Virus record (IMG/VR): IMGVR_UViG_3300035698_024877
Location: 1-64,000 of that record
Strand: one strand, 5' to 3'
From: a virus
Length of the DNA stretch: 64,000 nt
Part shown: positions 1 to 61,420 of the stretch, piece by piece
How positions within the stretch are numbered: the first letter of the stretch is position 1
Layout: each line of letters begins with the position of its first letter
Position numbers and translations under genes: made by a program
Notes under the pieces: generated by a model
Databases searched by the model: none
What the model was told of the DNA's origin: nothing
The model's input: the letters and a program-made list of their open reading frames with translations, nothing else

Positions 1-674
1 ATGTGTTTCTTGAATGTGATTTTTCTGGTGCAGAAGTACGAACAATGGCTTGGTATTCACAAGACAAAACCTTGATAAAATATCTTAATGAAAAATATGA
101 TATGCATAAGGATTTTGCGGCAAAACTCTATAAGATACCTATTGATAAAGTAACGAAGAAGCAAAGGGATGATGCTAAAGGTAGTTTTGTATTTCCTGAA
201 TTTTATGGTTCTTATTATGGAACGATAGCTGAAAATTTAGAATTAAATGCTAATCATGTTAAAAAGATAGAAGACTATTTATGGGAAACTTTTCCTGGTA
301 TAAAGAAGTGGCAGGAAGATCAGATAGAGTTTTATAGGAAACATTCTTATATAGAAACTCCTTTGGGCTTCAGAAGACATGCCCCACTTTCTATAAATGA
401 AATTATCAATTTTCCTGTTCAATCTTTGGCTTTCCATGCCCTTTTAGTTGGTATTACCAATGCCTATAAGGAATTAAAAATAAGAAATTTATCTAGTAAT
501 ATATCAACACAGGTACATGACAGCGTTTTGATTGATACAGTTGAAGAAGAAATGGAAGAAATAATAGATATTTTTGATAAATATTTAACAAGAAAATGGT
601 GGGATTTTCAAACTGTGCCTATGGAATTGTCGTGGTCTATTGGAATAAACCTATATGAAATGGAGGATTTGTAA
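1..674 (+). CDS. polA: Family A DNA polymerase, C-terminal palm/fingers part (cut by window start)
   Basis: This is the replicative or repair DNA polymerase of the phage; only the last 224 or so residues are in the window. Motif A (DFSGAEVR, visible residues 6-13), motif B (R-x3-K...FYG, residues 55-69) and motif C (VHDS, residues 171-174) appear in the order expected for Pol I-like enzymes. Motif C has Ser where many have Glu, as in several phage polymerases. The 5' end is missing, so the true start and any exonuclease domain are unseen. The 3' end overlaps an HNH endonuclease gene. A second, diverged copy of the last 25 codons lies downstream of that gene, so the present C-terminus may have been exchanged during endonuclease insertion. 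Confidence 0.93.
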   Translation, partial: VFLECDFSGAEVRTMAWYSQDKTLIKYLNEKYDMHKDFAAKLYKIPIDKVTKKQRDDAKGSFVFPEFYGSYYGTIAENLELNANHVKKIEDYLWETFPGIKKWQEDQIEFYRKHSYIETPLGFRRHAPLSINEIINFPVQSLAFHALLVGITNAYKELKIRNLSSNISTQVHDSVLIDTVEEEMEEIIDIFDKYLTRKWWDFQTVPMELSWSIGINLYEMEDL

Positions 675-1467
675 TATAGGAGGTTCAAAAGGATTCAAAC
701 ATTCAGAAGAAACCAAAAAGAAAATAAGTGAAGCCTTAAAAGGTAAACTTAAAGGTAAAAGATCTGGGAAAAATAATCCTATGTATGGAAGACACCATAC
801 TGATGAGACTAAAGAGAAAATGAGATTAAAAAGTTTTGGATTTAAGCATTCTGAAGAGTCAAAAAGAAAGATGAGTGAAAGGCAAAAGGGAGAAAAAGCT
901 TATTGGTATGGTAAGAAACATACTGAGGAACAGAAACAAAAAATAAGTGAGTCTACTAAAGGTGAAAAGGCTTATTGGTATGGTAAAAAGCATTCTAAAG
1001 AAACTAATGATAAAATAGGTAAAGCAAATAGCGGAGAAAATAATTATTGGTATGGAAAATCTCTTCCTGAAGAAATGAGAAGAAAGATTAGTGATAGTCA
1101 AAAAGGAGAGAAAAGTTATTGGTATGGAAAAATTGGAAAAGCCAACCCAAATTGGAAAGATAGTAAAACAGATAGGGAAAGGTTGTTGGGCAGATTGTTT
1201 CATAATTATTCTTTATGGAGAAAAGCTGTTTTTGAAAGAGATGATTACACCTGTCAAAATTGTGGTAAAGCGGGGGTTAAATTGAATGCCCATCATATCT
1301 ATTCTTATTATATTTATAAGATTTTGAGAATAGCATTATCTAATGGTATTGCTTTATGCGAAGATTGTCATTATTCTTTTCATGAGAAATATGGAAAACT
1401 AAAAAATAATAGAAAACAATTAGATGAATTTTTGGTGGATAGAAGTTTTTTGGGGAAACATAAATAA
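655..1467 (+). CDS. HNH homing endonuclease with NUMOD3 repeats
   Basis: A 270-residue free-standing homing endonuclease. Residues 13-160 are a chain of five or six NUMOD3-type DNA-binding repeats of the K-H-[ST]-x-E-x2-K-x-K-[IM]-[SG] type, several followed by a YWYGK sequence. Residues 200-243 form the nuclease: a CxxC pair, the HH of the HNH core at 213-214, then CxxC and H. The ATG at 655 lies inside the polymerase gene and overlaps its last 20 bases, so translation is probably coupled. An invader of the polymerase gene: see the polymerase-tail remnant at 1525-1602. Confidence 0.9.
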   Translation: MKWRICNIGGSKGFKHSEETKKKISEALKGKLKGKRSGKNNPMYGRHHTDETKEKMRLKSFGFKHSEESKRKMSERQKGEKAYWYGKKHTEEQKQKISESTKGEKAYWYGKKHSKETNDKIGKANSGENNYWYGKSLPEEMRRKISDSQKGEKSYWYGKIGKANPNWKDSKTDRERLLGRLFHNYSLWRKAVFERDDYTCQNCGKAGVKLNAHHIYSYYIYKILRIALSNGIALCEDCHYSFHEKYGKLKNNRKQLDEFLVDRSFLGKHK

Positions 1468-1486
1468 AATAATTTCTAATACCTAA

Positions 1487-1507
1487 TTTTTAAAATATAA
1501 TAAAATA
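1487..1507 (+). promoter_or_regulatory. Promoter-like box, TTTTAAAATATAAT family
   Basis: One of ten intergenic copies of a T4-5/A4/TATAAT box. It lies between the HNH gene and the polymerase-tail remnant. This copy ends AAAATA instead of AAAGTA. No -35 hexamer is evident. Confidence 0.5.
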
Positions 1508-1524
1508 TAGGAAAGGATAAAATA

Positions 1525-1602
1525 CATTGGGATTGGCAGGTTGTTAAAATGACTCTTGGTTGGGAAATTGGTGAAAATCTTTTAGATATGCAAGAAATAT
1601 AA
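1525..1602 (+). pseudogene. Displaced second copy of the DNA polymerase C-terminal tail
   Basis: Reading from base 1525 gives 25 codons and a stop with no usable start codon. The peptide (HWDWQVVKMTLGWEIGEN and onward) aligns without gaps to the last 25 residues of the intact polymerase upstream (WWDFQTVPMELSWSIGIN and onward), with about half the positions identical, including W, D, Q, V, M, L, W, I, G, N and L. It looks like the original 3' end of the polymerase gene, stranded when the HNH element and a replacement tail were inserted. Confidence 0.8.
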
Positions 1603-1638
1603 AATGAATACTGATAAATTATTTATAAAACCTTGGGA

Positions 1639-2283
1639 ATGAATAAAATGATACCTTTCCCTGATAAAAAATATGACATTATTTATGCTGACCCGCCGTG
1701 GCACTATAAAAACTATGCTGATAATACAGCGAGTAGGTGGGTTGGCAATAAGTATCCAGTAATGTCAAAAGAAGATATTTGCAATTTGCCAGTTGCTGAG
1801 ATTGCAAGTGATAACTGCATATTGTTTTTGTGGGTAACTCCCCCGTGCTTAATAGAGGGAATAGAGACTTTAAAAGCGTGGGGCTTTGAATATAAAACAA
1901 AGGGATTTTGTTGGGTAAAGAAAAACAAGATAGCTGACAGTTTTTTTTGGGGAATGGGTTACTGGACACGTAGTAATACCGAGGATTGTTTAATCGGGGT
2001 TAAGGGCGAGGATTGTGAGGATTGTTTAATCGGGGTTAAGGGGCGCCCCAAAAGAATAAGTGCTGGCATACATCAAGTTATATATGAAAGTCGTGGTGAG
2101 CATAGCAAAAAACCAGACAGTGTTAGAGATAAAATTGTTGAGCTTGTCGGAGATTTACCACGCATAGAATTATTTGCAAGACAAAAAACCGAAGGCTGGG
2201 ATGTTTGGGGAAATGAAATTGATGGGGTAGATTGTGATGGTGGAGTTGTTAAAAAAGAAAAAATAAAAACAGGGTTCTTTTAG
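1639..2283 (+). CDS. MT-A70-family adenine-N6 DNA methyltransferase
   Basis: Transfers a methyl group from SAM to adenine N6, probably in DNA. The catalytic DPPW motif is near residue 18, followed by the family features FLWV, WVKKNK and HSKKPDSVRDKI. An in-frame duplication has added about 12 residues around EDCLIGVKG (bases 1981-2042), just after the conserved NTED segment. The ATG at 1639 overlaps the stop of a possible 12-codon leader (1604-1642); the ATG at 1648 is also possible. The enzyme may protect phage DNA from host restriction. Methylation of the phage genome is inference. Confidence 0.87.
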   Translation: MNKMIPFPDKKYDIIYADPPWHYKNYADNTASRWVGNKYPVMSKEDICNLPVAEIASDNCILFLWVTPPCLIEGIETLKAWGFEYKTKGFCWVKKNKIADSFFWGMGYWTRSNTEDCLIGVKGEDCEDCLIGVKGRPKRISAGIHQVIYESRGEHSKKPDSVRDKIVELVGDLPRIELFARQKTEGWDVWGNEIDGVDCDGGVVKKEKIKTGFF

Positions 2284-2297
2284 TTTTTGTAACCAAT

Positions 2298-2319
2298 TTT
2301 TTAAAATATAATAGTAGTA
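2298..2319 (+). promoter_or_regulatory. Promoter-like box, variant ending AGTAGTA
   Basis: TTTTTAAAATATAAT followed by AGTAGTATAG, about 30 bases upstream of the clamp-loader start. The same variant tail occurs at 57766-57787. Confidence 0.55.
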
Positions 2320-2347: not shown

Positions 2348-3295
2348 ATGACTCTTTACCGAGAAGTAAGACCCAAAACTCTTGCTGAAGTTGTTGGGAA
2401 TGATGAAATTAAATCAGCGTTAAAAGGTATAATCAAATCTGAGTCTAAAGATAGACCACATGCGTTTATTTTTCATGGTCCTACTGGGTCTGGAAAGACG
2501 ACTTTTGCACGTATCCTTGCTAATGAGTTTGGGTGCACTCAAGAGGATATTGAAGAATACGATGCTGCTGATACAAGGGGCATTGATACAATTCGCAAGA
2601 TTAAAGAAAATTCTTCTTTTGCACCTTTTGGTGGTAAAGCAAGAGTTGCAATTTTGGATGAGTCTCATCAATTAACCCCTGTTGCTATGGAGGGGCTTTT
2701 AAAGCTTCTTGAAGACCCCCCAGAACATTTTTATATAATTCTTTGTACTACTAATCTTTCAAAAATAATTGACACAATTAAAAAGGGACGAACAACCATA
2801 TTTCAAGTTGAGCGATTACGTCCAAATGAACTTACTAATTTATTGAATTCTATTATAGCTTTAAAAGAATGGGAAGTTGATAAAGAAGTTTTAGATTGTA
2901 TAATAGAGGAAGCAGAAGGGGTACCAAGACAAGCACTAACTTTACTTGAAAAAGTTGTATATTTAACTAAAGAAGAAGCATTAACCCTTATTGAAAAGTC
3001 AAGTGAAAGCTCAAAAGAGATAATTGATTTATGTAGGGAAATTATTAAAACACCAAAGAATAAACAAAAGAAATGGATTAAAGTAAGAGAACTTTATAAA
3101 AGGATAGAAGCAGACCCAGAACAAATTAGAAGGGGGTTATTGGGCTATTTGGGAAAGGTTCTTTTGAATGAAAATAATGAATATGAACAGTTACGGCTTT
3201 TTGAGATGGTGATGGTATTTGAACCAGCATTATTTTATTCTGGAAAAGCTGGCTTAGTAAAAATGTTATATCAGGCAATAATAATTAATGAGTAA
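2348..3295 (+). CDS. Clamp-loader AAA+ ATPase (DnaX / T4 gp44-like)
   Basis: Loads the sliding clamp at the replication fork. Walker A (GPTGSGKT) is at residues 44-51, Walker B (ILDES) near 101, and the sensor 1 region (LCTTN) near 132. The arginine-finger region reads KGRTT rather than the classic SRC. The length of 315 residues fits a phage clamp-loader large subunit. No partner subunit or clamp gene lies in this window. It is preceded by a promoter-like box and an AAAGGAC ribosome site. Confidence 0.9.
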   Translation: MTLYREVRPKTLAEVVGNDEIKSALKGIIKSESKDRPHAFIFHGPTGSGKTTFARILANEFGCTQEDIEEYDAADTRGIDTIRKIKENSSFAPFGGKARVAILDESHQLTPVAMEGLLKLLEDPPEHFYIILCTTNLSKIIDTIKKGRTTIFQVERLRPNELTNLLNSIIALKEWEVDKEVLDCIIEEAEGVPRQALTLLEKVVYLTKEEALTLIEKSSESSKEIIDLCREIIKTPKNKQKKWIKVRELYKRIEADPEQIRRGLLGYLGKVLLNENNEYEQLRLFEMVMVFEPALFYSGKAGLVKMLYQAIIINE

Positions 3296-10533: not shown

Positions 10534-11334
10534 ATGCTTATGGATGAAGTTAAGAAATATTGTAAACAATGTGGAAAAGAGATACTTGTTGAATTTAATT
10601 GGCAAAAGAGAAAAATGTTTTGTGGTAAATCATGTTCTTCGAAATGGGGTAGTATTAATAATCCAAATTTTGGGACAAAAGGATTTAAGCACACAGAAGA
10701 AACAAAAAGAAAAATAGGGGAAGCAGCTAAAAGAGAAAATCTTTCTGAAGGGGCATTACGAAAGAGAAGCAAATCATTGGAGGGTAGAATATTTTCAGAA
10801 GAAACAAGAAAAAAAATGAGTAAATCGCGGATGGGTATAGTTTTAGCAGAAGAAACAAAAGAAAAACTTAGGCAAGCAAATCTTGGGAAAAAGCATACAG
10901 AAGAAACAAAAAAGAAAATGAGCGATATACATAGAAGAGAAAATCTTTCTGAAAAGACATTACAAAAGATGCGTGAGGCTAGCAAAGGTAGAAAGCATAC
11001 TGAAGAAACAAAAAGAAAAATAGGGGAAGCGCATAGGAGAGAAAAGCATTCAAATTGGAAGGGCGAATTGACTGAAAATAATGGATATATGTTTATTTAT
11101 GCTAAAGGAGATAAAAAAAGACGTTTGCATCGTTCTATTTGGGAAAAGGAGAATGGTGAAATACTTAAAGGACATGTAATTCATCATATTGATGGGAATA
11201 AAAAAAATAATGATTTGTTAAATTTGGAAATGCTGACTAGGGGCGAGCATAATAGTCATCACAAACCCGCAAAGAAAAAGATACTATTGTTGAAAAAGAA
11301 GAAATTCATCATATTAAAGAAAAGGAGTAAATAA
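10534..11334 (+). CDS. HNH homing endonuclease with NUMOD3 repeats
   Basis: 266 residues. The N-terminus has a CxxC...C...C zinc unit (residues 10-32). The middle holds five or so NUMOD3 repeats (KHTEETKRKIGEA type). The C-terminus carries an HNH_3-type nuclease with HHIDGNKKNND and a final HNSHH. A start at 10540 is also possible. It lies between duplicated copies of the epimerase translation-start region, which points to insertion at the very start of that gene. Confidence 0.88.
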   Translation: MLMDEVKKYCKQCGKEILVEFNWQKRKMFCGKSCSSKWGSINNPNFGTKGFKHTEETKRKIGEAAKRENLSEGALRKRSKSLEGRIFSEETRKKMSKSRMGIVLAEETKEKLRQANLGKKHTEETKKKMSDIHRRENLSEKTLQKMREASKGRKHTEETKRKIGEAHRREKHSNWKGELTENNGYMFIYAKGDKKRRLHRSIWEKENGEILKGHVIHHIDGNKKNNDLLNLEMLTRGEHNSHHKPAKKKILLLKKKKFIILKKRSK

Positions 11335-19959: not shown

Positions 19960-21420
19960 ATGAAACTAATTAGACCATATTTTGAAATTCAAACTGATTT
20001 TGATGGTGTAGATGTTTTGCGAACCATTGAAAAGTATGGCAGAGTTTGCTATAAGACAGAAGAAAAAGTAACAGATACATCATATATTCCTTTTATTAAA
20101 AACATTATGAAACGGGGGCATTTATCAGTTATAGAGCATTCTTTGGTTACAGTTAGGTTTATAATTGATAGAGGTGTATCCCATGAACTGGTTAGGCATC
20201 GTTTAGCATCTCTATCCCAGGAAAGCACCCGCTATGTAGGATATTCTGATAGAGTCTATAAAAATAATAAAATGACAGAAGATGAAGTATGTGAATTATA
20301 TGAATTAGGAAACTCAATGAAGAGGGTATCAGAAATTTCTGATGAAAAATATACTGAATGGGATATATACAAGATTCTTAATAAAAATAGTATAAAAAGA
20401 AGAAATCTAGGAAACACTGGCGTCATTTCTGAAAATTTCTTTGATATAATAGACACTCCAGAAAAAGCGTACTTATTGGGGTTTATTCAAGCAGACGGAA
20501 ATTTACGTAAAGATTCATGTCAGATAACAATAACACAAAAGGATGGTTGGTTTATAGAAAGAATGTTAAGAGATTTTATAAAACCTAATTTATCGTCATG
20601 TAATGATGGAAATTGTAAATCATATTCTTTCTCAAACAAAAAATTATATAGCAATTTGTTAAAAGTTGGAATTGTACCAAACAAGACATATAGTATGACA
20701 GATTTTAATGCAACCGCATTATGGAAAAGTGTTTCCAGTGATCTTAAGTGGGATTTTTTAAGAGGTTTACTTGATGGAGATGGCAGTTTAAGGTTTTTTA
20801 AACAGAATAATAAAGGGAAAACAGATTCTTGTAATATTAATTGGACTGGAAACAAATTTTTGTTAGAGCATATATCTTTATATTTAAAAGAAAAATTTAT
20901 GTATGAACCAACTGTACGTAAAGTACATGGTTCTAAAATTTTATATAGAATAATAATCTCTTCTCCAAAAGTTGGAGAAGAGGTATGTAAAAAAATGTAC
21001 TCAAATTTTGTTTTTCCTTATGGGCACCCTGTAAAAACAAGCAGAGCATTTGAAAGAATAAATTTTGATTATAATATAGCACAATGGGGATGTGAAAAAT
21101 TTCAAGCAATAATACCAATTTGGTGCAATAAATTAACTCCAGAATTTTGGATATGGGCAGAAGCTATGGACAAATCAGAAGATGCATATTCCGATTTAAT
21201 AGGTTTAGGTTGGGCACCTGAACAAGCAAGGAGCGTATTACCTAACTCACTTAAAACAGAAGTAATTATGTCAGCTAATTTAAGAGAGTGGTTACACATA
21301 TTTAAAGTGCGGACAGATAAAGCCGCACACCCACAGATGAGAGAAATTATGATTCCACTTTGCGAAGAATTTAAAAGAAGAATTCCTATAATTTTTGATA
21401 ACATAGTTTTGGAGAAGTAA
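19960..21420 (+). CDS. thyX: FAD-dependent thymidylate synthase ThyX with in-frame LAGLIDADG insertion
   Basis: Makes dTMP from dUMP using FAD and folate. The N-terminal part (1-98) includes the ThyX signature RHRLASLSQESTRY (79-92). The remaining ThyX sequence resumes near residue 377 (WAPEQARSVLPNSLKTEVIM, NLREWLH, then an R...AHPQMRE end). Between them about 278 residues encode a helix-turn-helix-like region (105-150) and a LAGLIDADG endonuclease with motifs LLGFIQADG (172-180) and FLRGLLDGDG (266-275). The reading frame is open throughout. I see no intein splice-junction residues and little room for a group I intron core. Without the insert, ThyX would be about 208 residues, a normal size. 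Confidence 0.9.
   Translation: MKLIRPYFEIQTDFDGVDVLRTIEKYGRVCYKTEEKVTDTSYIPFIKNIMKRGHLSVIEHSLVTVRFIIDRGVSHELVRHRLASLSQESTRYVGYSDRVYKNNKMTEDEVCELYELGNSMKRVSEISDEKYTEWDIYKILNKNSIKRRNLGNTGVISENFFDIIDTPEKAYLLGFIQADGNLRKDSCQITITQKDGWFIERMLRDFIKPNLSSCNDGNCKSYSFSNKKLYSNLLKVGIVPNKTYSMTDFNATALWKSVSSDLKWDFLRGLLDGDGSLRFFKQNNKGKTDSCNINWTGNKFLLEHISLYLKEKFMYEPTVRKVHGSKILYRIIISSPKVGEEVCKKMYSNFVFPYGHPVKTSRAFERINFDYNIAQWGCEKFQAIIPIWCNKLTPEFWIWAEAMDKSEDAYSDLIGLGWAPEQARSVLPNSLKTEVIMSANLREWLHIFKVRTDKAAHPQMREIMIPLCEEFKRRIPIIFDNIVLEK
20254..21087 (+). mobile_element. LAGLIDADG endonuclease insertion inside thyX
   Basis: Approximate bounds of the insertion, judged from where ThyX similarity stops and resumes. It contains an HTH-like segment and a two-motif LAGLIDADG domain, in frame with both thyX halves. 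Confidence 0.75.
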
Positions 21421-48906: not shown

Positions 48907-49779
48907 ATGAAATCTTTACTTAGGTTATTTAAAGCTGTTGAGATTGCAGAAAAAGAAAAAGTGTCAATGCCAATATCAAAGTCGGGCGCTATTTTTGAAA
49001 AAACGATTAAGTGTGGTTTCGTTTTTTCCCCAAGGGTTATTTACGATTATTCTGAAGCAGTATTGTTAGAACTAGTAGATGTTGTTAAAGTAGAATTAGG
49101 GCTTTCTGCAGAGCAAATGAATAGTTCTTTTCATAAGTCTTGGAAGAAAGTTAAAGATGCGAGTATAGAACAATTGGTTCTTGAACAATTAACTCATTAT
49201 TTTACAACCTATGGTTTTGAGTGTTTTGGTATTTATGACAAAGACTCTGTTTATATCCCCAATGAAAAATTAGAAATTCCAGAAATTGATAATGATGGTT
49301 TTAAATTTATTGTTATCAAAGGATATACTAAAGTTGAAATTAAAGAAAAAATAATTGAATTATTAAAATCTGGTATTGCTTTAAAAGAAGACACAATAAA
49401 AGATGTAGTTGAAGTTTGTAAATATGTAGCTATTGATAATGTTGATGAAATTAAAAACAAAGAAGTTAAAGTAATCTTATGTGATCATCTCAATCTATTT
49501 CCAAAAGACCCAGTTGAATTTTTGAGGTATGTCGTATATGTAGCTACAAATGATACAATTTTGATTAAGAGTATGGAGTTAATAGGAAAAATAAAAGGGA
49601 CACAGAAGGGTAGCGAAGTAAATAAGTTATTTAGGGATTATAAAAAACAATATGGGCTTGAAAGATTGGCAGAGATATTTTATAGATTTCGTCCGATCTT
49701 TTTAGCATTTCGTCATATTGAGGGAGATGGATGCCAACAGGAATTTATAAAAGAACACAAGAACATAAGGAAGCATTAA
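48907..49779 (+). CDS. N-terminal half of a split conserved phage protein
   Basis: 290 residues. The body to about residue 273 (SFHKSWKKVKDASIEQLVLE, HYFTTYGFE, ...RFRPIFLAFRH) looks like a conserved globular protein. The last 20 residues read into the overlapping endonuclease gene and are probably not native. The remaining half is encoded at 50633-51715, after the endonuclease. Translation starts behind AAAGGAG, which may be controlled by the RNA array just upstream. Confidence 0.7.
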   Translation: MKSLLRLFKAVEIAEKEKVSMPISKSGAIFEKTIKCGFVFSPRVIYDYSEAVLLELVDVVKVELGLSAEQMNSSFHKSWKKVKDASIEQLVLEQLTHYFTTYGFECFGIYDKDSVYIPNEKLEIPEIDNDGFKFIVIKGYTKVEIKEKIIELLKSGIALKEDTIKDVVEVCKYVAIDNVDEIKNKEVKVILCDHLNLFPKDPVEFLRYVVYVATNDTILIKSMELIGKIKGTQKGSEVNKLFRDYKKQYGLERLAEIFYRFRPIFLAFRHIEGDGCQQEFIKEHKNIRKH

Positions 49780-50636
49780 GTGTATCACATAAAGGAGAAA
49801 AAAGTCATTTTTATAAAGATGGAAGAACCCTTAAAAGGTATTATTGTATAGATTGTAAAAAAGAACTTAAGTGTTATCGTTCTAAAAGATGTAAAAAGTG
49901 TTCTGCTAAAGAAAAGTGGAATAGATTAGAATATAAAGAAAAAATAAGTGGGGAAAAATCCAATTTTTATATAGATGGGAGAACTTCTAATAAATATTAT
50001 TGTGTAGATTGTGATGATGAAATTAAAATGAGAAGTATTAGGTGTAGATCTTGTGCTGCTAAAATGAAATGGACTAATCCCAATCTTATAAAGAGAATGA
50101 GTGGAGAAACCCACCCTAATTGGCGGGGTGGGAAGACTAAAAAATATTGTGTTGGTTGTAAAAAAGAAATTTCACAACAAGCTATTGAAAGGTGCAATTC
50201 ATGTAGTACTAAGATGAAATGGCAAGATTCTAAATATAGAAGGAAAAATAAAGCAAATTTGGGGAATAAGCATACAGAAGAGACTAAAAAGAAAATGGGG
50301 GTAAGAACAAGACTTAATTGGGCAAATGGTTGTTATGATAAGGTATTTAAAAGCCCAACTAATCCAGAAAAGAAAATTATGGTAATGTTGAAAGAATTGG
50401 GTATAGACTATATTTTTCAATATAGACCAAAAGATTTTTCAAGAATTTATGATTTTTATACTCCTATCATGAATCTTTTAATTGAATTTGATGGTATCTA
50501 TTGGCACAGTCTTCCAGGAGCGAAAGAAAAAGACACAGAAAAAACTAATTATGCTAAAAATAATAACTATACTTTATTAAGATTTAATGAAAATAATATA
50601 GATAGTTTTACTAAAGTAATTGGAGGAAGAATATGA
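49731..50636 (+). CDS. EDxHD (Vsr-like) homing endonuclease with NUMOD3-like and zinc repeats
   Basis: 301 residues. Residues 15-180 hold three repeats of a YYCxxCKKE...RCxxC zinc unit with NUMOD3-like pieces. The C-terminal 95 are a Vsr/EDxHD nuclease: an EKKIMVMLKELGIDY helix, FQYRPKDF, then LLIEFDGIYWHS and LLRFNE, as in I-Bth0305I-type enzymes. It overlaps the upstream half-gene by 49 bases and the downstream half by four, so all three are translated in relay. Confidence 0.85.
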   Translation: MPTGIYKRTQEHKEALSVSHKGEKSHFYKDGRTLKRYYCIDCKKELKCYRSKRCKKCSAKEKWNRLEYKEKISGEKSNFYIDGRTSNKYYCVDCDDEIKMRSIRCRSCAAKMKWTNPNLIKRMSGETHPNWRGGKTKKYCVGCKKEISQQAIERCNSCSTKMKWQDSKYRRKNKANLGNKHTEETKKKMGVRTRLNWANGCYDKVFKSPTNPEKKIMVMLKELGIDYIFQYRPKDFSRIYDFYTPIMNLLIEFDGIYWHSLPGAKEKDTEKTNYAKNNNYTLLRFNENNIDSFTKVIGGRI

Positions 50637-61399: not shown

Positions 61400-61420
61400 T
61401 TTTTAAAATATAATAAAGTA
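61400..61420 (+). promoter_or_regulatory. Promoter-like box
   Basis: TTTTAAAATATAATAAAGTA with one extra leading T, then TAAAGG. 13 bases before the ATG at 61434. Confidence 0.6.

What the first reader, a model, noticed from the sequence alone, without database searches (positions are those of the whole stretch)
600..1602. DNA polymerase tail present twice, flanking an HNH endonuclease
The intact polymerase ends with a tail that has a diverged second copy (1525-1602, about half identical over 25 codons, no start codon) just beyond the HNH gene. The element seems to have inserted near the 3' end while supplying a replacement tail, leaving the original stranded. This resembles the way some integrases rebuild the tRNA they enter, but at a protein-coding target.
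Basis: seen in the sequence. Interest (0 to 1): 0.75.

Follow-up and report, generated by a model that had tools for sequence, protein, structure and literature searches.

The report
Selfish nuclease replaced a polymerase tail
In this bacterial virus a selfish DNA-cutting gene sits between two different versions of the last 25 codons of the DNA polymerase gene, one in use and one stranded; the best reading is that the cutting gene arrived together with a substitute gene ending, a trick described in fungal mitochondria and seen here in two further viruses.

Summary
Family-A DNA polymerase (3-674) ends in tail T1. An HNH/NUMOD3 endonuclease (655-1467) overlaps its stop. A second, start-less polymerase tail T2 (1525-1602; 12/25 residues identical) lies beyond it. 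T2 scores 65 against T1; the next best of all six frames of the window scores 25. None of about 70 relatives carries a second tail, including L171, whose polymerase is 49% identical and abuts the clamp loader. T2 is not a decaying local duplicate: it kept coding constraint (P about 2.5e-5 under neutral decay), so it was a working tail until recently. No intron was found. A phage-type promoter and leader lacking its start codon ends exactly at T2, marking the right-hand breakpoint. The tail in use, T1, is the one whose kinship disagrees with the gene body. Two more cases turned up: L194 (HNH_3), where the stranded tail matches the HNH-free relative L216 and the tail in use does not, and L265 (GIY-YIG). 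Best reading: intronless homing brought endonuclease plus replacement tail, stranding the native one, as in fungal mitochondrial atp6. The direction of replacement in the window itself is supported, not proven.

The parts
3..674 (+). last 223 codons of a family-A DNA polymerase, ending in tail T1; the record begins inside the gene
   Evidence: PF00476 E 2.7e-34, profile positions 154-380 of 381; no other PF00476 match in the record
597..674 (+). T1, polymerase tail in use, proposed to be the incoming (foreign) tail
   Evidence: in frame with polymerase; tail identity to L101 60% against 32% for the body, the largest such mismatch among 62 sequences
655..1467 (+). free-standing HNH endonuclease with five NUMOD3 motifs, start overlapping the polymerase stop by 20 nt
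   Evidence: PF07460 E 6.6e-49, PF01844 E 5e-5; absent from the same place in nearly all relatives
1487..1502 (+). phage promoter-like motif TTTTTAAAATATAATA
   Evidence: 13 copies with at most one mismatch in the record, all + strand and most followed within about 20-60 nt by an SD-like run and ATG
1503..1524 (+). gene-leader-like sequence with SD-like GGAAAGGA (1510-1517) but no start codon (ATA at 1522-1524); right-hand breakpoint
   Evidence: compare the motif copies at 61400, 23824 and 54254, each followed by SD and ATG
1525..1602 (+). T2, stranded second polymerase tail, proposed native
   Evidence: neutral decay rejected
1633..2283 (+). MT-A70 family DNA methyltransferase (likely start 1639 or 1651); also absent from the fetched relatives at this place
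   Evidence: PF05063 E 1.8e-32
2298..2313 (+). second copy of the promoter motif, upstream of the clamp loader
2348..3295 (+). clamp loader gene, which directly follows the polymerase in uninterrupted relatives
   Evidence: PHROG 5846 E 4.3e-62; synteny in L100, L101, L171 and others

Best explanation
The block T1 + HNH gene (+ promoter/leader) came from a related phage in which a free-standing HNH gene follows the polymerase stop. It entered a phage whose polymerase ended in T2. Proposed steps: (1) the HNH enzyme cuts or nicks the HNH-free polymerase gene about 25 codons before its stop (inferred); (2) the left, polymerase side of the break is repaired from the donor through homology in the gene body, copying T1, the HNH gene and the leader (inferred); (3) the right side is rejoined without homology exactly where the recipient's last 25 codons begin, leaving T2 stranded (breakpoint at 1522-1525 seen, mechanism inferred). 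The polymerase stays functional because it received a complete substitute tail, and the interrupted recipient tail no longer holds an uninterrupted target. T2 is then a recent fossil without its own start.
For: T2 is a genuine polymerase tail. Relatives have one tail, then the clamp loader, with no HNH of this kind. T2 evolved under coding constraint: 36 of 78 nt differ from T1 (10, 9 and 17 by codon position), yet 12/25 residues are kept with no stop; 2.5e-5 of neutral simulations do that. T1, not T2, disagrees with the gene body: +0.28 tail-minus-body identity with L101, above all 61 relatives, T2 at most +0.10. A promoter + SD leader without start codon ends at T2. No intron by Rfam, and only 57 nt lie between HNH and T2. 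Independent parallels: in L194 an HNH_3 gene follows a tail that diverges from relative L216 (51% nt), while the stub fused to the HNH's end matches L216 (70% nt, 16/21 residues) like the gene body. In L265-L270 a GT6 gene, a GIY-YIG gene and a stub lie in a row, identical in six contigs; the relative L273 has gene + HEG without stub, the expected donor form.
Against: No relative close enough to show the empty site or the donor (best 49%). T1 and T2 share a derived NW-to-NL change, suggesting both come from near this lineage, which weakens an L101-like origin of T1. The L101 incongruence rests on 25 residues (about 1 in 62). HNH cleavage is not shown. The leader between HNH and T2 is not explained by a minimal tail + HEG cassette.
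Confidence: 0.63

Rival explanations
1. Two related phages recombined illegitimately at 1522-1525 without any role of the HNH enzyme: left part (polymerase-T1-HNH-leader) from one, right part (T2-MT-A70-clamp loader) from the other. The HNH gene is a bystander.
For: The junction is a leader fused to T2 with no shared repeat; an MT-A70 gene foreign to the fetched relatives lies right of it.
Against: The same gene-HEG-stub order recurs at three unrelated genes with three unrelated endonuclease types, and in fungal mitochondria (PMC3630166), which makes a bystander role unlikely.
Confidence: 0.2
2. Assembly chimera of two related phages in the metagenome.
For: Single contig; near records may be left out of the searches; reads were not available.
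Against: 18-mers sampled every 4 nt around the junction are unique in the record, apart from the promoter motif; the parallel in L265-L270 is identical in six contigs.
Confidence: 0.07
3. Local tandem duplication of the tail, HNH inserted between, T2 decaying.
For: T1 and T2 share the derived NL.
Against: Neutral decay rejected, P about 2.5e-5; the two tails are as different as tails of relatives with 35-60% body identity (48% against a mean of 42%).
Confidence: 0.06
4. T2 is an alternative 3' exon joined by splicing of a group I or II intron that holds the HNH gene, T1 being the unspliced ending.
For: HNH genes in phage polymerase introns are known (PMC3428280), and ICP1 splices genes around HEGs (PMC10448857).
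Against: No intron match even at E 10 with lax filters; outside coding sequence only about 57 nt are free, and these are a promoter/leader of a type found elsewhere in the record.
Confidence: 0.03

Closest known systems
Endonuclease-carried C-termini of fungal mitochondria (Allomyces macrogynus atp6; Glomus sp. atp6, atp9, cox2, nad3; Rhizopus atp9; Mortierella cox2), PMC3630166
   Same: Gene core joined in frame to a foreign C-terminus, then an endonuclease ORF, then the stranded native C-terminus; the two tails diverge.
   Different: There LAGLIDADG or GIY-YIG in mitochondria; here HNH/NUMOD3 in a phage polymerase, and a promoter/leader precedes the stub. There the native tail is shown by close relatives; here that holds only for L194.
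Free-standing homing endonucleases of T4-like phages (seg and mob genes; intronless homing, co-conversion, marker exclusion), PMC2988022
   Same: Promoter-less HEG overlapping an essential gene's stop, optional among relatives, expected co-conversion of flanking gene sequence.
   Different: In the passages read here no stranded duplicate tail is described; the first 50 kb of T4, which hold several HEGs, showed none in the scan.
mobA/gene 60-39 of T4 and mobE/nrdA of Aeh1 (PMC2988022, PMC5009743)
   Same: HEG insertion into a coding gene with the gene function kept.
   Different: There the gene is split into separately expressed parts (with bypassing in gene 60); here a duplicate tail substitutes.
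Integrases that restore the 3' end of their target gene (tRNA genes; icd in E. coli), own knowledge
   Same: Incoming element supplies a substitute 3' end and leaves the old one displaced.
   Different: No integrase, no exact repeated core, tails only 48% identical in protein.

Membership tests
Free-standing homing endonuclease | Recognisable homing-endonuclease nuclease domain and DNA-binding motifs | tested here: met
   HNH PF01844 above cut-off plus five NUMOD3
Free-standing homing endonuclease | Not inside an intron or intein | tested here: met
   no Rfam intron; polymerase frame closes at 674, before most of the HNH gene
Free-standing homing endonuclease | Optional presence at one site next to a conserved gene among relatives | tested here: met
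   absent in most of about 70 relatives; a different NUMOD3 endonuclease at the same gap in L211/L222
Free-standing homing endonuclease | Cleaves the endonuclease-free allele and is inherited preferentially | not testable with these tools
   needs a cleavage assay and mixed infection
Tail-supplying endonuclease ORF (fungal mitochondrial type) | Duplicate C-terminus before and after the endonuclease ORF | tested here: met
Tail-supplying endonuclease ORF (fungal mitochondrial type) | Upstream tail in frame with the gene core | tested here: met
Tail-supplying endonuclease ORF (fungal mitochondrial type) | Stranded tail is the native one, inserted tail foreign | tested here: inconclusive
   suggestive for the window (rank 1 of 62); supported in the parallel L194/L216
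Tail-supplying endonuclease ORF (fungal mitochondrial type) | Mitochondrial location, LAGLIDADG or GIY-YIG nuclease | tested here: not met
   phage record, HNH; so it works like one but is not filed as a member
Group I intron with HNH ORF in polymerase | Catalytic intron RNA and exon junctions | tested here: not met
Integrase-type element restoring its target's 3' end | Integrase gene and identical att core in both copies | tested here: not met
   no exact repeat of the tails; the genes between polymerase and clamp loader are HNH and MT-A70 only

The most novel reading that the evidence does not exclude
Phage free-standing endonucleases of several families repeatedly travel as cassettes with a replacement 3' end of the gene they target, leaving readable native stubs; the three cases here (polymerase, a 339-residue gene of unknown function, a glycosyltransferase) would be the first seen outside organelles.
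Probability: 0.4. Interest if true: 0.72.

Novelty: new variant of a known kind. Interest (0 to 1): 0.55.

Why it matters
Stranded tails would mark the right-hand breakpoint of a homing event in nature, so they predict where each uncharacterised endonuclease cuts and let tail replacement be scanned for in any genome collection. They also show that the ends of essential replication genes can be exchanged between phages by selfish endonucleases, which can mislead polymerase phylogenies that include the C-terminus.

Tried and rejected
Group I/II intron or alternative exon: Rfam with strict and lax thresholds, and space budget. Near DNA matches in phage records: only the methyltransferase. Exact degenerate DNA pattern for the shared tail motif in viral contigs: no hit. 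Clamp loader as bait for relatives: no hit. Genome contigs: five distant relatives. The annotated phage homologues of the HNH gene that were inspected sit beside other genes (PhoH-like, terminase, helicase, UDP-glucose dehydrogenase), not beside polymerases. Similarity of the sequences around the two breakpoints is no more than chance. T4 1-50,000, which holds several HEGs, shows no stranded tail. Many tail-repeat hits elsewhere are tandem MT-A70 or other paralogues.

Full report
What is there. The window is the first 64 kb of a 95,337-base linear virus record. It opens inside a family-A DNA polymerase gene whose visible part (3-674) covers profile positions 154-380 of PF00476. The polymerase ends in WWDFQTVPMELSWSIGINLYEMEDL (T1). 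An ORF of 270 residues with five NUMOD3 motifs and an HNH domain (655-1467) overlaps the polymerase stop by 20 nt. After 57 nt comes HWDWQVVKMTLGWEIGENLLDMQEI-stop (T2, 1525-1602), then an MT-A70 methyltransferase and the clamp loader.

Is it more than chance? The last 30 residues of the polymerase score 170 against themselves, 65 against T2 and at most 25 anywhere else in six frames. The same search downstream of about 70 related polymerases gave at most 46, against 74 for the window. In an in-register-stop scan of 110,195 pairs, shuffled ends never exceeded 41.

Relatives. A profile built from the window and two viral contigs brought in 68 relatives, the nearest (L171) 49% identical. Most keep polymerase followed by clamp loader: 10 bp apart in L171, overlapping in L100, 65 bp apart in L101; none has T2. 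The gap takes inserts often: a different NUMOD3 endonuclease in L211/L222, without a stub, and what read as methyltransferase-like genes in L196 and L217. So the HNH gene, T2 and the MT-A70 gene are all extra in the window.

What kind of copy is T2? T1 and T2 differ at 36 of 78 nt (10, 9 and 17 at codon positions 1, 2 and 3). Mutating T1 at random by the same amount gives 12 or more identical residues and no stop in 2.5e-5 of trials. T2 therefore diverged while coding for a working polymerase end and was stranded recently. Either T2 or T1 is a tail from another lineage.

Which tail is native? Direct evidence is limited because no close relative is held. T1 is unusually like the tail of L101 (60%) given a body identity of 32%; this excess (+0.28) is larger than the largest excess of any of 61 relatives (mean 0.16, sd 0.05), whereas T2 reaches only +0.10. 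This points to T1 as the incomer, at about 1 in 62. Against it, both tails share NL where nearly all relatives have NW or SW.

The right-hand breakpoint. TTTTTAAAATATAATA occurs 13 times in the record with at most one mismatch, always on the + strand, and most copies are followed within about 20-60 nt by an SD-like run and ATG. The copy at 1487-1502 is followed by AAATATAGGAAAGGATAAAATA and then directly by T2, where an ATG is expected. So a gene leader has been joined to the start of T2. Sampled 18-mers around the junction are unique, apart from the motif, so there is no repeat that would easily mislead an assembler.

Independent parallels. In L194 a 339-residue gene ends DPRRYKTIGNVMNEEMKRKKGVLF; an HNH_3 gene starts at its stop, and the HNH ORF itself ends KKRRYRTLGDVMAEELKPKGQLL. 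L216 has the same gene (68% identical) without the HNH and ends RRYRTLGEVAHEELNPKGRLL. The stub is 70% identical to L216 in DNA and 16/21 in protein, like the gene body (about 65% DNA), while the tail in use is 51% in DNA; blastn aligns L194 1535-1584 to L216 1783-1832. In L265-L270, six contigs identical here, a GT6 glycosyltransferase is followed by a GIY-YIG/NUMOD3 gene and a stub that repeats 69 nt at 96%. The related L273 has gene and GIY-YIG gene but no stub, which is what a donor would look like. About 44 distinct HEG-like places lie in all loci held, so stubs are a minority.

Mechanism. Free-standing endonucleases cut the allele that lacks them and are inherited with flanking sequence (PMC2988022). 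If the right flank is rejoined without homology, the recipient's last codons stay behind. That gives gene - foreign tail - endonuclease - native stub. This order, with the foreign tail transcribed together with the gene core, is described for atp6, atp9, cox2 and nad3 of Glomus and atp6 of Allomyces (PMC3630166). Seen here: anatomy, constraint, breakpoint, parallels. Inferred: cutting, the repair route and, for the window, the direction.

Alternatives. Splicing is disfavoured. Local duplication is disfavoured by constraint. Recombination without a role for the HNH gene and an assembly chimera remain possible. The integrase comparison is only an analogy.

Novelty. The searched open-access papers show the arrangement in fungal mitochondria but gave no phage case; subscription papers were not searchable, so priority is not claimed. 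I file it as a new variant of a known kind.

Noticed in passing
L194 3-1597 against L216 829-1845: A second gene - HNH_3 - stranded tail arrangement, with the stub fused in frame to the end of the HNH ORF; the HNH-free relative L216 matches the stub.
   Followed up: yes
L265 2934-4549 (identical in L266-L270); L273: Glycosyltransferase family 6 gene, GIY-YIG/NUMOD3 gene and a stranded tail repeated at 96% over 69 nt; the relative L273 lacks the stub.
   Followed up: partly
window 1487, 2298, 19902, 23824, 35816, 42724, 47736, 54254, 57766, 61400 and three more beyond 64 kb: Phage-wide promoter-like motif TTTTTAAAATATAATA, all on the + strand.
   Followed up: partly
window 19960-21417: ThyX thymidylate synthase interrupted by a LAGLIDADG-type endonuclease region, likely an intein.
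   Followed up: no
window 10534-11331 and 49731-50633: Two more endonuclease-like genes with NUMOD3 (HNH_3; DUF559); no stranded tail found beside them.
   Followed up: partly
window about 1978-2043: Short in-frame tandem repeat (EDCLIGVKG twice) inside the MT-A70 methyltransferase.
   Followed up: no
record 83731-84804, minus strand (L006 3731-4804): TnpB-like protein gene directly next to a large-terminase-like gene (by reading of the translations, not searched).
   Followed up: no
L101 against L102/L199: Near-identical contigs differ by an in-frame gap near the polymerase end and a shortened clamp loader start; deletion or assembly error.
   Followed up: no
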